From the NCBI GenBank assembly GCA_026388535.1, contig JAPLJP010000028.1:1-38683 (forward strand): a stretch of 38,683 bases of DNA. Direction: 5' to 3'. The notes below the pieces were generated by a model. That model was not told where the DNA came from, did not search any database, and saw nothing but the letters and a program-made list of their open reading frames with translations. Within the stretch, counting starts at the first letter, position 1. Every line of letters begins with the position of its first letter. Positions 4,834-12,247 of the stretch are shown here, in pieces. This DNA comes from Deltaproteobacteria bacterium (GTDB lineage Bacteria; Desulfobacterota; Syntrophia; Syntrophales; Smithellaceae). The translations under genes and the position numbers were made by a program.

Positions 4834-6238
4834 AGAGACGAAAGAAAAAAAAGAAAAAGTGCCGCGTCAGAAAATGCCGGAACAGGATCCTAAAAAAAGA
4901 ATTCATAACTTTGAAGAAGTTCCTATTGGATATTCTGAAGAAACGGCGATAATTGAGGCGAAGCGTTGCATCCAGTGCAAGAAGCCGGGCTGTGTCGGCG
5001 GATGTCCCGTTGATGTCAAGATTCCTGAATTTATCAAAGAAATTTCGGAAGGCCGTTTTATTGAAGCGGCGTTGAAATTAAAAGAAACAAACGGCCTGCC
5101 GGCTGTCTGCGGCCGTGTCTGTCCGCAGGAAGACCAGTGTGAAAAAGAATGTGTTCTGGGCAAAAAAGGCGAGCCAGTCGCTGTCGGCCGTCTGGAGCGC
5201 TTTGCCGCTGATTATGAACGCAACAGCGGCAAAATTTCGATTCCACCACAGGTAAAATCCAATGGCAAGAAAATCGCTGTAGCCGGTGCCGGTCCCGCAG
5301 GACTTACCATCGCCGGCGATCTGGTCAAGCTCGGTTACGAAGTTACCATTTATGAAGCCCTTCATAAGTCTGGCGGCGTGCTGGTTTACGGTATTCCGGA
5401 ATTTCGTCTGCCCAAAGCCATTGTCGAAGCGGAAGTGGAATATCTAAAGAAGCTGGGCGTCAAGATAGAGACCAATTTTGTCATTGGCCGCACAAAAACA
5501 ATCGATGAGCTTTTTACTGAAGGATTTAATGCCGTTTTTATCGGCGTAGGCGCGGGCGCTCCCGTTTTTATGAATATTCCCGGCGAAAACTTGAGCGGCA
5601 TATATTCGGCTAATGAATATCTGACGCGTTCTAATTTGATGAAGGCTTATTTATTTCCCGAATACGACACGCCGATTGTCCGCGGCAAGAAAGTCGCCGT
5701 TGTCGGCGGCGGTAACGTGGCAATGGATTCCGTGCGTACAGCATTGCGGCTAGGCGCTGAAAGAGCGATGATCATATACCGCCGCACTGAAGTGGAAATG
5801 CCCGCCCGTAAAGAAGAAGTCCATCACGCGCAGGAAGAAGGCGTGGAATTTTTGATGCTGCACAATCCTGTGGAATATATAGGCAATGAAGCCGGTTGGG
5901 TAACCGGCATGAAGTGCATTAAGATGGAACTGGGCGAGCCGGACGCGTCAGGAAGAAGAAGCCCTGTGCCGATCAAAGGTTCCGAGTTCGTGATTGATGT
6001 TGACACGGTAGTTGTCGCCGTGGGCACTATGGCTAATCCGATTGTTCCGGCAACTACAGCCGGTTTGGAAATAAATAAAAAAGGCTACATCTTAACCAAG
6101 GATGAATCGGGACTGACCAGCCGCGAAGGAATTTATGCCGGAGGCGATATAGTCACCGGTTCGGCAACGGTTATTCTGGCTATGGGCGCGGGACGTAAAG
6201 CAGCCAATGCGATACACGAATACCTTTCCAAAAAATAA
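4799..6238 (+). CDS. nfnB: NfnB/GltA-type subunit of ferredoxin:NADP+ oxidoreductase
   Basis: A 479-residue protein with the layout of the glutamate synthase small subunit and NfnB: an N-terminal double 4Fe-4S cysteine region (CIQCKKPGCVGGCP and CGRVCPQEDQCEKEC), an FAD loop GAGPAGLTIAG near residue 162, an NADP loop GGGNVAMDS near residue 302, and a closing GGDIVTGSATVILAMGAG. The start at 4799 has GGGAGG just upstream; a second ATG at 4823 is less well placed. No glutamate synthase large subunit is nearby, and pairing with nfnA makes the NfnAB reading much more likely. Confidence 0.92.
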   Translation: MKNISVGAMETKETKEKKEKVPRQKMPEQDPKKRIHNFEEVPIGYSEETAIIEAKRCIQCKKPGCVGGCPVDVKIPEFIKEISEGRFIEAALKLKETNGLPAVCGRVCPQEDQCEKECVLGKKGEPVAVGRLERFAADYERNSGKISIPPQVKSNGKKIAVAGAGPAGLTIAGDLVKLGYEVTIYEALHKSGGVLVYGIPEFRLPKAIVEAEVEYLKKLGVKIETNFVIGRTKTIDELFTEGFNAVFIGVGAGAPVFMNIPGENLSGIYSANEYLTRSNLMKAYLFPEYDTPIVRGKKVAVVGGGNVAMDSVRTALRLGAERAMIIYRRTEVEMPARKEEVHHAQEEGVEFLMLHNPVEYIGNEAGWVTGMKCIKMELGEPDASGRRSPVPIKGSEFVIDVDTVVVAVGTMANPIVPATTAGLEINKKGYILTKDESGLTSREGIYAGGDIVTGSATVILAMGAGRKAANAIHEYLSKK

Positions 6239-8806: not shown

Positions 8807-9277
8807 TTATTTTGACATTTGCTTCTCAATCAATTCTAATAATTCCTTGTTTTCCGGAATGTCTGACATCGAATGGCCGTAGTGCACAAAACGAACCTTG
8901 CCGGATTTATCAATCATCACCTGCGCGGGCATTCTTCCTAATTTGAATATCTTGACCTCCTGTCCGTACAGCTTCAAAACCTTATGTTCAGGATCGGGTA
9001 AACCGATAAACGGCAGTTTTTCTTTTCCCCAGTAATTCTTAAAAGCCTCGGCGTTTTCTGGACCGGCAACAAGTATTTCTGTATCCAGCTTCACAAATTT
9101 TTCATAATCCTGGCGCAACTGCGCCATGTGCGCGCGGCAGAATGGTCAAAAAAACCCGCGGTTGAAAATCACCATCACATTATTTTTATTTTTATAGTTT
9201 GAAAGAGACACGCTCTTACCGTTAAAATCGTTCAGCGTAAAATCCGGCGCCTGAACATTTAATTCTACTCTGGCCAT
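8807..9277 (-). CDS. Peroxiredoxin-like (AhpC/TSA/redoxin fold) selenoprotein, UPFC active site
   Basis: Read from ATG 9275-9277 to the stop at 8807, this is a 156-residue thioredoxin-fold protein if the in-frame TGA at 9146-9148 is decoded as selenocysteine (residue 44). Before it come APDFTLNDFNGKSVSLSNYK and VMVIFNRGFF; after it PFCRAHMAQLRQDY. The peroxiredoxin-like family normally reads RGFFCPFCR.H..QL here, so TGA replaces exactly the first catalytic cysteine. A hairpin 19 bases downstream suits a bacterial SECIS. GAGGAT precedes the start. Read conventionally, the gene would be two useless fragments, the second beginning at 9127. Likely role: peroxide or disulfide reduction. Confidence 0.85.
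9111..9126 (-). promoter_or_regulatory. Candidate bacterial SECIS hairpin of the peroxiredoxin-like selenoprotein
   Basis: In the mRNA sense, a perfect 6-bp stem UGGCGC/GCGCCA closes the loop AGUU. The loop begins 25 bases after the UGA and has G at its second position. Bacterial SECIS elements usually have a small apical loop with a G in its first two bases, 16-37 bases after the UGA, so this fits. The lower stem is weak. Confidence 0.65.
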
Positions 9278-9293
9278 AATGATTATCCTCCTT

Positions 9294-10538
9294 TCATGTC
9301 GACGGGCGAAGGTATTGCATAGTACCGTCCTGAACCACGGCTACCTTAGCCGGACCAGGATAAAGTTTTTCGAGTAAGTCTAGCACTTCAGGCCATGTCT
9401 TTACCGCAACGGCATCATTGATGTGGCAGAAGAGATCCAGATTAGTGCGATCAGGGTGTGGCGCAAGTACTATCAGTTTTTTCATAAGTAAAGGTATGAA
9501 GCCGGTGGATCTGGGAGAGTAATGTCTTCCACCGTAATCAGTGCCCCAGCTCCGCATAACATAGTGCGGCACCTGGCCTTCGGGTGCGTCCGAGATAAGA
9601 ACGGCTGTGCCTGTTGCATCGGGCTTGAGCGTCTGCAACGCGATTAAGAGGGCGATGGCCGATTCGTTTGCCTTCGCGTAAGCGTTACACACAACGATGT
9701 CGTAGCCGCTGGAAAATGGTATGCCGTAATGTACCTTGCCTTCTTCGGCTCCGGCGGCATGCGTGGCGCGGAAGGAACCGGCGTAGAGATTGGAAATATT
9801 ACCGCGGCGGTTAATGAGGCAATCAACCTTAAAATTGAGTCCGGCCATATCACCGGCCGCGTCACACTCGGAGCGCATAATGTTGTTTTCGAAATTCCCC
9901 AGGCCTGTGCGCGCTTGGTCACGATAGAACTGGTTGTGAAACTGGTTGATGGTTTCTATACCGGCCACGCCCGGCAGAATAATTTTGGCTCCACCGCCGA
10001 AGCCCACATGTATATGGGCGGTTATACAGCCTATGCCGATTTTCAAATCGCAGGCCATAAATTCCCGGTTGAACCAGAGTTCCACGCCTGTGGGTGTTCG
10101 TCCTGCACGAACGGTGTTCTGGAAGGGATCATGGTTGTATAACGCATACTGTTCCACAATAGCATCACCGAGTTTCTTTCGGGCATTGATCATGTCGTAT
10201 GCGCCGTGCGCCCCCAGCGCCCACACAAACCTGATTTGATCGCGTTTGAGGCCGGCACGGTGCAGGATGTCCAGAATTAAAGGCGCCACATCCTTGACCG
10301 GAGTGGGACGCGTCATGTCATCGAATACGATTACAGCCTGATTCTTGTCTTTGGCCAGTTCGAAAAGCGTGGGACCATCAATAGGTTTTTCAACCTTTTC
10401 TCGAATTTGCTGAAGCGTTAAATCAGGTTTTTCCATGCCGGGCGAGGTGAGGTCGGTTATCTCCCACCGATCCGGAAAAATCAGTTCCCGCTCGATGTTC
10501 TCATACCAGCGCCGTGAAGGGACGGATATACGTTTCAT
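9294..10538 (-). CDS. LarA-like protein (nickel-dependent lactate racemase superfamily, DUF2088)
   Basis: I place the start at 10538, after AAAGGAT, rather than at the longer frame's first codon, giving 414 residues. The N-terminal part contains VFDDMTRPTP and WALGAHGAY, and the central part HIHVGFGGGAKIILPGV. Both regions match the LarA/DUF2088 superfamily, whose founder racemises lactate with a nickel-pincer cofactor; many relatives act on other 2-hydroxy acids. No larB, larC or larE genes for cofactor synthesis are visible nearby. It lies 16 bases upstream of the peroxiredoxin-like selenoprotein gene and is probably co-transcribed with it. The substrate is unknown. Confidence 0.8.
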   Translation of the reverse strand: MKRISVPSRRWYENIERELIFPDRWEITDLTSPGMEKPDLTLQQIREKVEKPIDGPTLFELAKDKNQAVIVFDDMTRPTPVKDVAPLILDILHRAGLKRDQIRFVWALGAHGAYDMINARKKLGDAIVEQYALYNHDPFQNTVRAGRTPTGVELWFNREFMACDLKIGIGCITAHIHVGFGGGAKIILPGVAGIETINQFHNQFYRDQARTGLGNFENNIMRSECDAAGDMAGLNFKVDCLINRRGNISNLYAGSFRATHAAGAEEGKVHYGIPFSSGYDIVVCNAYAKANESAIALLIALQTLKPDATGTAVLISDAPEGQVPHYVMRSWGTDYGGRHYSPRSTGFIPLLMKKLIVLAPHPDRTNLDLFCHINDAVAVKTWPEVLDLLEKLYPGPAKVAVVQDGTMQYLRPST

Positions 10539-10551
10539 GTCTAATATCCTT

Positions 10552-10596
10552 TCACCGCAAAATCCGGTGCTGAACATTTAATTCAACTCTGGCCAT
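10552..10596 (-). pseudogene. Duplicated 5' fragment of the peroxiredoxin-like gene
   Basis: Starting at ATG 10596, with GGAGGG upstream, the bases nearly repeat the start of the selenoprotein gene at 9277. Both encode MARVELNVQ, after which a lost base shifts the frame and a stop follows at codon 15. Similarity continues about 15 bases further, into CCGGATTTT, and stops just before larA. It may be the relic of a second redoxin copy or a duplication scar. It could still act as a short leader peptide for larA. Confidence 0.65.
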
Positions 10597-10781: not shown

Positions 10782-11375
10782 TTATTTAATTTTGTCGAGA
10801 AGATTACGGAATGTTTCTATCGGCTGAGCTCCGACCATTTGATATTTTTTCCCTATGACGAACAGGGGTACACCTGTCAAGCCTATCAATTGCCCCTCTT
10901 TTCTGGCTTCGTTCAAGCGTGATGCGTAACGGCCATCGTGAACGGCACTGATCGTTTCTTTTTCATCAAGACCGCTTTTCTTCGCAACGTCGGCAATAAC
11001 ATTCAGATTGCCAATATCCAGGCCTTCCGTAAAGTACGCATGAAAGATGATCTGATGAAACGAATCATATCTGTCCAGATCACGGGCAAATTCAGAGGCC
11101 ATTAGCGCTAATCTGGAATTGGAAAGGACTGTTAGATTACCGAAGACAACGCCCACTTCTTTGCCTCGTGCACGCAGTTGTTCATAAAAAGAAGAGAGAT
11201 CATAGCCCCTGAATCTTTCGGAAAGCAACATTCCTGCGGGCGGCGTCTCCGGATGAAGCTCGTAACTTACCCATTTATCATTAATGGCGTATTCTTTCTT
11301 CAACTGATCGACAATGCCCTTGCCGATATAACAGAAGGGTCAGATATAGTCGGAAAATATTTTAAAGTTGATCAT
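10782..11375 (-). CDS. DsbA-family (FrnE-like) selenoprotein, UPFC active site
   Basis: From ATG 11373-11375 the frame reads MINFKIFSDYI, then TGA at 11340-11342, then PFCYIGKGIVDQLKKEY and about 170 more residues to the stop at 10782. FrnE/DsbA-like oxidoreductases have DYICPFCYIG in this place, so TGA replaces the first cysteine of CPFC at codon 12. With selenocysteine the product is 197 residues, near family length. The C-terminal GVPLFVIGKKYQMVGAQP is the cis-proline region of the thioredoxin fold. No signal peptide is seen, so it is probably cytoplasmic. A strong SECIS-like hairpin follows the TGA. Confidence 0.88.
11307..11327 (-). promoter_or_regulatory. Candidate bacterial SECIS hairpin of the DsbA-like selenoprotein
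   Basis: In the mRNA sense, AUCGGCAA pairs over 8 bp (one G-U pair) with UUGUCGAU and closes the loop GGGCA. The loop starts 20 bases after the UGA and begins with GG. This matches the distance, loop size and loop guanine expected for bacterial SECIS elements, and is a better match than the hairpin of the peroxiredoxin-like gene. Confidence 0.75.
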
Positions 11376-11454
11376 TGTTTGATTCCTTTATAAATGCATG
11401 ATCTGGAAAGAACTGGTTTAAATATACTCGCAATAGGCCTGGGGTTCAAACTGT

Positions 11455-11797: not shown

Positions 11798-12247
11798 ATG
11801 GAAAGAAGTGATCAGGCGGTTCTAAAATTTGTCAGCGGTTATAATTGCGCGCAGTCGGTTCTTTTCTCTTTTTGTGATGATCTCAATCTAGATAAGGATA
11901 AAGCCCTGAAGCTGGCTTGCGGGTTCGGTGCGGGCATGGGAAGAAAAGAGGAAGTCTGCGGAGCGGTAAGCGGCGGGATAATGGTAATCGGCGCTAAATA
12001 CGGCCGGGGAGAAAATGAAGACCGGAAAACCACCGATAGCACTTACGTTAAGATAAGGGAACTTATGGATCAGTTCTCCAAAAAACACGGCACTTACATC
12101 TGCCGCGAATTATTGAACGGCTGTGAGTTAACAACTGAAGAAGGGCAGAAGACATATCTGGGGAACGATTATTTTAATAAAGTATGCAAGCCGTGTGTGA
12201 AGAGTGTGGTGGAAATACTTGAGAATATCATTAAAACAGAAAAATAA
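11798..12247 (+). CDS. C_GCAxxG_C_C family redox-type protein
   Basis: A 149-residue protein with the family signature: NCAQSVL near the N terminus, ACGFGAGMG, then CGAVSGGIMVIG, a cysteine in YICRELLNGC and a final CKPCV. The spaced cysteines suggest a metal or iron-sulfur site or redox chemistry, but the function of the family is not established. GGGAGG precedes the ATG by 5 bases. The start is immediately after a family B repeat, which may be part of its leader. Confidence 0.85.
   Translation: MERSDQAVLKFVSGYNCAQSVLFSFCDDLNLDKDKALKLACGFGAGMGRKEEVCGAVSGGIMVIGAKYGRGENEDRKTTDSTYVKIRELMDQFSKKHGTYICRELLNGCELTTEEGQKTYLGNDYFNKVCKPCVKSVVEILENIIKTEK

What the first reader, a model, noticed from the sequence alone, without database searches (positions are those of the whole stretch)
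10782..11375. DsbA/FrnE-like gene with TGA at the CPFC cysteine: second selenoprotein within 2 kb
Seen: MINFKIFSDYI, TGA (11340-11342), PFCYIGKGIVDQ in one frame, and an 8-bp hairpin with loop GGGCA starting 20 bases after the UGA, close to the ideal bacterial SECIS. Known: DsbA-like oxidoreductases have DYICPFCYIG here. Two independent TGAs that both replace the first Cys of CPFC argue strongly against sequence error.
Basis: partly seen in the sequence, partly recalled or inferred. Interest (0 to 1): 0.78.

Follow-up and report, generated by a model that had tools for sequence, protein, structure and literature searches.

The report
UGA-encoded selenocysteine in a FrnE-like redoxin
This bacterial gene appears to use a stop codon to insert selenocysteine at the active site of a thiol-redox enzyme; the find is well supported by comparison with relatives, but it is a new member of a selenoprotein family known since 2005.

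Summary
The gene at 10782-11375 (-) encodes 197 residues with one in-frame UGA (11340-11342) in DYI-U-PFC, on a FrnE-type DsbA fold. In 149 genomes (own included), all 54 matches reaching that residue carry the UGA there. The hairpin is weak evidence in this gene alone but strong across the family: 43 sequences of its clade keep 7.35 of 8 pairs against 5.61 expected from synonymous recoding (0 of 500), a second clade has an unrelated stem at the same place, and 88 cysteine homologues show no excess. The genome has selA, selB, selD and tRNA-Sec. The neighbouring peroxiredoxin-like UxxC gene is a second likely selenoprotein. DsbA-like UxxC selenoproteins (COG2761/PF01323) are in print, so this is a new member of a known kind; no NCBIfam model reached its cut-off. 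Unexpected: the genome also has a second UCA tRNA with the cysteine discriminator U73 inside a selenium-uptake cluster, resembling the reported selC* tRNA-Cys, so part of the product might carry cysteine. That is untested.

The parts
10782..11375 (-). FrnE/DsbA-like selenoprotein gene, 197 aa, Sec12-Pro-Phe-Cys15
   Evidence: translation; Pfam DSBA 1.2e-27; relatives; model pLDDT 95.4; nearest solved folds FrnE
11340..11342 (-). in-frame UGA, read as selenocysteine
   Evidence: TGA at this residue in 54 of 54 matches that reach it, 149 genomes searched, own included
11307..11327 (-). SECIS-like hairpin ATCGGCAA-GGGCA-TTGTCGAT (loop 11315-11319)
   Evidence: family-level synonymous-recoding test; third-base changes 15 of 120 in codons 13-24, which hold it, against 601 of 1728 after them (my sums)
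11384..11389 (-). ribosome-binding site AAAGGA
   Evidence: read
10866..10868 (-). Pro170 in the GVP loop: expected cis-proline next to the active site
   Evidence: invariant in the 30 aligned homologues; the cis-Pro role is recalled from thioredoxin-fold knowledge, inferred
8807..9277 (-). peroxiredoxin-like UxxC selenoprotein gene, 156 aa (the other gene of the pair)
   Evidence: (AhpC-TSA 6.9e-23)
9146..9148 (-). in-frame UGA of the peroxiredoxin-like gene
   Evidence: TGA in 20 of 20 loci read, window included
9112..9125 (-). SECIS-like hairpin GGCGC-AGUU-GCGCC of the peroxiredoxin-like gene
   Evidence: 6.00 of 6 pairs over 20 loci, synonymous null 3.90, 0 of 1000
11798..12247 (+). C-GCAxxG-C-C redox protein (cysteine form), divergent neighbour found beside one or both selenoprotein genes in 7 relatives
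   Evidence: my count

Best explanation
The gene encodes a cytoplasmic FrnE-type thiol:disulfide oxidoreductase whose attacking residue is selenocysteine (U12-P-F-C15). SelB recognises the hairpin that follows the UGA and delivers Sec-tRNA-Sec to that codon, so the ribosome reads through. The selenolate attacks a disulfide or an oxidised thiol in a substrate, Cys15 resolves the selenenylsulfide, and an unidentified reductant regenerates the pair. Shown here by computation: reading frame, predicted fold, conserved UGA, conserved hairpin, presence of the Sec machinery. Inferred: Sec incorporation itself, the reductase direction, the cytoplasmic location (no signal peptide seen by eye, no predictor run), the regenerating partner.
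For: TGA at residue 12 in 54 of 54 matches that reach it (51 of 149 genomes, own included; 3 further match pieces do not reach it). Stem beyond synonymous expectation in two clades with unrelated stem sequences at the same offset (0 of 500 each), and a third group of 2 sequences with a 10-bp stem nearby (best-stem test 0 of 500); 88 Cys homologues show no excess. Third-position changes depressed over the codons that hold the hairpin. selA, selB, selD (its match contains one TGA) and tRNA-Sec in the genome. Of 61 phylum genomes whose best match is listed with one TGA, 60 have selA above cut-off. G181, inside the Sec clade on the quick tree, has Cys (TGC), a broken stem and no selA match. D. radiodurans FrnE structures are the top five fold matches, TM 0.86-0.91 by query length. 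TGA is the stop of 4 of 11 large window ORFs listed.
Against: The hairpin of this single gene is not significant by shuffling and only weakly so by synonymous recoding (8% for the stem, 0.85% for energy). 3 of 43 UGA sequences of its clade and 7 of 43 of the second clade have fewer than 7 pairs at the fixed site. One genome with the UGA gene, G341, has no selA above cut-off, perhaps a binning gap. A second UCA tRNA with U73 could give cysteine. The simulations treat related sequences as independent. No protein, RNA or selenium data exist here. The home genome is a draft with 5.75% estimated contamination.
Confidence: 0.92

Rival explanations
1. Dual decoding: the UGA is read as selenocysteine by tRNA-Sec and, when selenium is short, as cysteine by the second UCA tRNA (U73, selC*/tRNA-Cys type), giving a working CPFC enzyme either way.
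For: The genome has a second tRNA with anticodon UCA and discriminator U73, in a cluster with a selenium-metabolism LysR regulator, the YedE selenium transporter and a Se/S-carrier-like protein. Relatives have such tRNAs too, so contamination is unlikely. A review describes selC* tRNA-Cys, some with UCA anticodons, in anaerobes including Syntrophobacterales. Cys homologues of this enzyme exist.
Against: No association: by my count 5 of 36 genomes of the family have both the UGA gene and a second-type tRNA, against about 6 expected by chance; 12 of the 17 with the UGA gene have no second-type tRNA at the threshold used, which may miss weak ones. Each of 18 genomes tested has one SelB above the cut-off; 16 have a further match below it (about 400 aa), which I take for EF-Tu by length. 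Recognition by SelB and charging with Cys are not shown.
Confidence: 0.2
2. Sequencing error or pseudogene: a Cys codon misread, or a nonsense mutation in a dead gene.
For: Only that TGA is one base from TGC/TGT.
Against: The same codon in many separate genomes, protein conserved on both sides with changes mostly at third codon positions, and a conserved hairpin.
Confidence: 0.01
3. Genome-wide reassignment of UGA to an amino acid rather than Sec-specific recoding.
For: A second UCA tRNA exists.
Against: TGA ends 4 of 11 large window ORFs listed. Among window frames of 140 codons or more with one or two in-frame TGAs, only the two UxxC redoxins look credible (my reading). SelA and SelB frames have no internal stop while SelD has one. 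The UGAs are followed by conserved hairpins.
Confidence: 0.01
4. Different chemistry: a glutathione-linked isomerase or GST-kappa-like enzyme rather than a disulfide reductase.
For: HCCA isomerase and GST-kappa structures are among the 50 matches shown (TM 0.72-0.81 by query length).
Against: They rank below FrnE (TM 0.86-0.91), and U/C-x-x-C is invariant in the 30 aligned homologues. That those two classes lack a CxxC redox pair is recalled, not tested.
Confidence: 0.1

Closest known systems
DsbA-like selenoprotein family (COG2761 / PF01323, UxxC), Sargasso Sea 2005; 'DsbA-like protein form 1' in the 2026 review
   Same: Pfam DSBA domain, UxxC motif, bacterial SECIS
   Different: No held paper has both Smithella and selenocysteine, or both Syntrophales and selenoprotein; Syntrophus aciditrophicus was listed in 2006 without a DsbA-like selenoprotein.
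FrnE of Deinococcus radiodurans (PDB 5cnw, 5co3, 5coh, 5xwh, 5cp1)
   Same: Best sequence and fold match; CP(W/F)C active site, described as cytoplasmic
   Different: Sec in place of the first Cys; no C-terminal CxxxxC, since the 197-aa product has no Cys other than Cys15
Prx-like thiol:disulfide oxidoreductase selenoproteins (PF00578, UxxC)
   Same: The neighbouring gene 8807-9277 fits this family by domain and motif; the family was listed for Syntrophus aciditrophicus in 2006
   Different: Below the cut-off of every NCBIfam model that matched; best SelL-related, 75 bits against 120
selC* tRNA-Cys (Mukai et al. 2017, as described in PMC7609411)
   Same: tRNA-Sec-like, U73, UCA anticodon, can be drawn with an 8/4 acceptor/T arm; reported from anaerobes including Syntrophobacterales
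   Different: Here it lies beside YedE and LysR; the review describes a second selB downstream, and none above the cut-off was found

Membership tests
Bacterial selenoprotein | In-frame UGA at a residue that is Cys in homologues | tested here: met
   TGA at residue 12 in 54 of 54 matches that reach it; of 80 named loci 75 have TGC/TGT and 5 TGA
Bacterial selenoprotein | SECIS hairpin directly downstream, conserved beyond the protein sequence | tested here: met
   weak in the single gene
Bacterial selenoprotein | Sec machinery in the same genome | tested here: met
   tRNA-Sec, SelB, SelA, SelD with one TGA in its match
Bacterial selenoprotein | Selenium present in the protein | not testable with these tools
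   needs mass spectrometry or 75Se labelling
DsbA-like selenoprotein (PF01323, UxxC) | DSBA domain above the gathering score | tested here: met
   97.4 bits against 25.6
DsbA-like selenoprotein (PF01323, UxxC) | UxxC with Sec at the N-terminal position | tested here: met
   U12-P-F-C15
DsbA-like selenoprotein (PF01323, UxxC) | Clusters with the published family sequences | not tested
   I had no access to the published sequences
FrnE | FrnE fold | tested here: met
   model pLDDT 95.4; ranks 1-5 are FrnE
FrnE | C-terminal CxxxxC, found in many but not all members | tested here: not met
   no Cys beyond Cys15; absent also from S. roseofulvus and D. maricopensis FrnE, so not strictly defining
FrnE | Disulfide reductase or isomerase activity | not testable with these tools
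   needs purified protein
selC* tRNA-Cys (second tRNA) | U73 and tRNA-Sec-like structure | tested here: met
   U73 in 14 of 14 second-type tRNAs read by eye, G73 in 3 of 3 canonical ones; G025 and G026 have a 7/5-like sequence
selC* tRNA-Cys (second tRNA) | Second selB downstream, as described for Syntrophobacterales | tested here: not met
selC* tRNA-Cys (second tRNA) | Charging with Cys and UGA decoding | not testable with these tools
   needs an experiment

The most novel reading that the evidence does not exclude
The UGA codons of the two redoxins are two-way codons: Sec when selenium is plentiful, Cys delivered by a U73-UCA tRNA encoded inside the selenium-uptake cluster when it is not. 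The cell could then adjust the chemistry of the same active site to selenium supply without changing the gene.
Probability: 0.18. Interest if true: 0.75.

Novelty: new member of a known kind. Interest (0 to 1): 0.42.

Why it matters
It indicates that the FrnE-like enzyme of these anaerobes, and of many other genomes of the phylum (38 of 57 further matches read), uses selenocysteine. Annotation with the ordinary code would cut the window gene to a 173-residue fragment, and no NCBIfam model reached its cut-off. The contrast between UGA and Cys homologues gives a natural test set for bacterial SECIS rules, with three unrelated stems. The second UCA tRNA in the selenium cluster makes selenium-dependent Sec/Cys switching directly testable.

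Tried and rejected
One search translated a wrong frame (coordinate slip) and one search folded a stretch that began at the A of the second UGA, 2 bases past its U; neither is used as evidence. The single-sequence shuffling tests and 10 were not significant (z -1.18 and -0.54). A link with the LarA-like gene between the two selenoprotein genes was considered and dropped: it had no match at 1e-15 in the 58 relative loci examined, though most of these have only about 1.5 kb of flank. Neighbours in five other relative loci vary (MsrB/SelR, MFS transporter, PEPCK, SBF, nitroreductase, TPR, Fic), so no substrate is suggested beyond a redox context. Contamination as the source of the second UCA tRNA was considered and thought unlikely. 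The SelB-like match on C10 I take for EF-Tu: a short frame with a ribosomal-protein-like frame beside it, my reading. Presence of selA hardly separates UGA from non-UGA genomes in this phylum: 16 of 19 without a TGA in the best match have it too (two of those 19, G182 and G513, have Ser at the site, and G182 also has a weaker match with a TGA). An association between the UGA gene and the second tRNA was looked for and not found.

Full report
What is there. On the minus strand, 10782-11375, one frame runs from ATG to TAA for 197 residues with a single in-frame TGA at codon 12 (11342-11340), in MINFKIFSDYI-U-PFCYIGKGIVDQ. AAAGGA stands 8 bases before the ATG. With table 11 the listed frame is a 173-aa fragment from a TTG, and neither NCBIfam model that matches the full protein reaches its cut-off, so ordinary annotation would probably miss the N-terminus. 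Pfam gives DSBA, 1.2e-27. A model from an alignment of 30 sequences has mean pLDDT 95.4; the five best solved folds are D. radiodurans FrnE (TM 0.86-0.91 by query length), then S. coelicolor SCO1869. In that alignment of 30, which I picked from the fetched loci, D9, Y10, U/C12, P13, F14, C15, Y16, P42 and P170 are invariant.

Is the UGA real? In 149 genomes (own included) the protein query found 57 match rows in 52 genomes. All 54 rows that reach residue 12 carry one TGA, and I read it at that residue in each; the other 3 pieces do not reach it, and one genome (G142) has only such a piece. The gene is patchy: 97 of the 149 have no match, 11 of the 16 other same-genus genomes among them. In a phylum-wide sample of 395 genomes, 108 had a match. 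I fetched and read the codon in 57 of these matches beyond those above: 38 TGA, 17 Cys, 2 Ser. Of 80 named loci, 5 have TGA (two Syntrophaceae, one Smithellaceae, one Smithella and one Deltaproteobacteria record) and 75 have TGC or TGT; one of the six peptide patterns of that scan is written with Cys at this residue, so it leans towards Cys homologues. The home genome's place near Syntrophaceae/Smithella is inferred from these titles.

Is there a SECIS? The hairpin ATCGGCAA-GGGCA-TTGTCGAT has its loop 20 bases after the UGA. For the one gene the statistics are weak: shuffling z -1.18, synonymous recoding 412 of 5000 for the stem and 17 of 2000 for the energy. Across the family they are not. 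After dropping 18 duplicate rows and 2 Ser rows, 43 UGA sequences of the window's clade (window included) have 7.35 of 8 pairs at the fixed site (null 5.61, sd 0.15, 0 of 500); 40 of 43 have 7 or 8. A second UGA clade (UPWCY), 43 sequences, has 7.33 (null 4.96, sd 0.14, 0 of 500; 36 of 43 with 7 or 8) with an unrelated stem, typically TTCAGTAC-CGGGC-GTATTGAA, at the same offset. Two sequences of a third group (f48) have a 10-bp stem nearby (best-stem test 0 of 500; not significant at the fixed site, 119 of 500), while 3 Cys sequences of the same family group lack it. The 88 Cys homologues have 3.67 pairs (null 4.12, 500 of 500 as high), 3 of 88 with 7 or more (the smaller set agrees). Between the window gene and 10 close relatives, third-position changes are 15 of 120 in codons 13-24, which hold the hairpin, against 601 of 1728 after them (my sums). 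Related sequences are not independent, so these simulations overstate certainty; unrelated stems in separate clades, and their loss in most Cys relatives, do not rest on that.

Machinery. The home genome has tRNA-Sec (77 bits), SelB, SelA, and a SelD whose match contains one TGA. I tested 80 phylum genomes for selA. Of 61 whose best match is listed with one TGA, 60 pass the cut-off; the exception, G341, has only a marginal match. Of 19 whose best match has no TGA, 16 pass. So selA is nearly universal in this set and discriminates little.

Evolution. A quick tree of 90 rows that I picked (48 U, 42 C) needs at least 8 changes between U and C, 4 forced by well-supported branches. Several Cys rows lie inside UGA clades. 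One, G181, has no selA match and a broken stem. Another, a Gaiellales record (L052), still has an 8-bp stem, as might be expected of a recent change from Sec to Cys or of transfer. The direction is inferred from nesting and is not proved.

The neighbour. The gene 8807-9277 (-) is a peroxiredoxin-like protein with UPFC. By my count of the listing, 53 rows of at least 40% identity span the Sec residue and 52 of them are marked with one TGA. The exception, G019, has a TAG and a TAA; G004 is broken in two pieces, each with a TGA; G001 is a fragment. I read the position only in the 20 fetched loci, where it is TGA in 20 of 20. Its hairpin GGCGC-AGUU-GCGCC keeps 6.00 of 6 pairs over these 20, against 3.90 expected (0 of 1000). 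In the same genus the UGA-DsbA gene lies within 3 kb of the UGA-Prx gene in all five other genomes that have it (G003, G005, G010, G012, G014; positions), and by my count a C-GCAxxG-C-C redox protein lies near one or both in 7 relatives.

Mechanism. The most likely reading is a cytoplasmic disulfide reductase or isomerase of FrnE type with a selenolate as attacking group. D. radiodurans FrnE is proposed to be a cytoplasmic disulfide reductase, and its mutant is more sensitive to cadmium and diamide (PMC8945050, passages). This protein lacks the C-terminal CxxxxC proposed to regenerate that enzyme, so another reductant is needed.

An unexpected rival. The genome has a second UCA-anticodon tRNA (C71), with U73 in place of G73 and an acceptor/T arm that can be drawn 8/4 (ARAGORN draws it 7/5, the 8/4 reading is mine). 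It lies between a YedE selenium transporter (510 bits, cut-off 200) and a Se/S-carrier-like protein, with a selenium-metabolism LysR regulator beyond YedE. At E 1e-9 and strict filters, second-type tRNAs (53-64 bits) occur in 13 of the other 59 genomes searched; the home copy itself is near that threshold, so some may be missed. I fetched all 13; 12 have one or more of the three genes beside them, and the other lies near a contig end. U73 was read in 14 of 14 (home copy included) and G73 in 3 of 3 canonical tRNA-Sec. G061's copy has a GCA anticodon; those of G025 and G026 have a different, 7/5-like sequence. A review describes selC* tRNA-Cys of this sort and reports that a special CysRS aminoacylates it (PMC7609411, that section read). 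That a non-canonical tRNA-Cys with SelB can recode the Sec UGA is the title of Vargas-Rodriguez et al. 2018, seen only in a reference list; the paper is not held. So the codon may be read in two ways. Against this, 12 of 17 family genomes with the UGA gene have no second-type tRNA at that threshold, 5 of 36 have both against about 6 expected (my count), and no second SelB above the cut-off was found in 18 genomes.

Known or new. DsbA-like UxxC selenoproteins (COG2761, PF01323) were reported in 2005 (PMC1088965, passages), appear in selenoproteome tables of 2006, 2008 and 2016 (PMC1794560, PMC2398784, PMC5029168; passages) and are listed as DsbA-like form 1 in 2026 (PMC13188914, passages). Selenocysteine with Smithella and selenoprotein with Syntrophales gave no paper; selenoprotein with FrnE gave 9, none about bacterial selenoproteins by title, not opened; selenoprotein with COG2761 gave only the 2005 paper. 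This is therefore a new member of a known kind. A place of selC* in a selenium-uptake cluster was not mentioned in the section I read.

Noticed in passing
home genome contig C71:11335-11429 (L002; L191 2337-2430): Second UCA-anticodon tRNA with discriminator U73 inside a selenium-uptake cluster (LysR_Sec_metab, YedE, Se/S carrier); second-type tRNAs in 13 of 59 other genomes searched. Resembles selC* tRNA-Cys, but no second selB was found.
   Followed up: partly
L250 (G061:C18): In another family of the order, the second tRNA near YedE and the Se/S carrier has a GCA (Cys) anticodon according to ARAGORN, which supports the tRNA-Cys reading.
   Followed up: partly
L052 (Gaiellales MAG record), match 5001-5585: Cys-coding homologue placed among the UGA genes on the quick tree that still has an 8-bp SECIS-like stem: a possible recent Sec-to-Cys change or transfer.
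   Followed up: partly
G341, L217: UGA gene with an intact-looking hairpin in a genome rated 100% complete but with no selA above cut-off: a binning gap or real loss of SelA.
   Followed up: no
window 9294-10577 (-): Lar_N (nickel-pincer racemase family) protein between the two selenoprotein genes; no match in the 58 relative loci examined, most with short flanks.
   Followed up: partly
L189, L190 (G076, G035): Extra short or broken second copies of the UGA-DsbA gene, one with USFC instead of UPFC.
   Followed up: no
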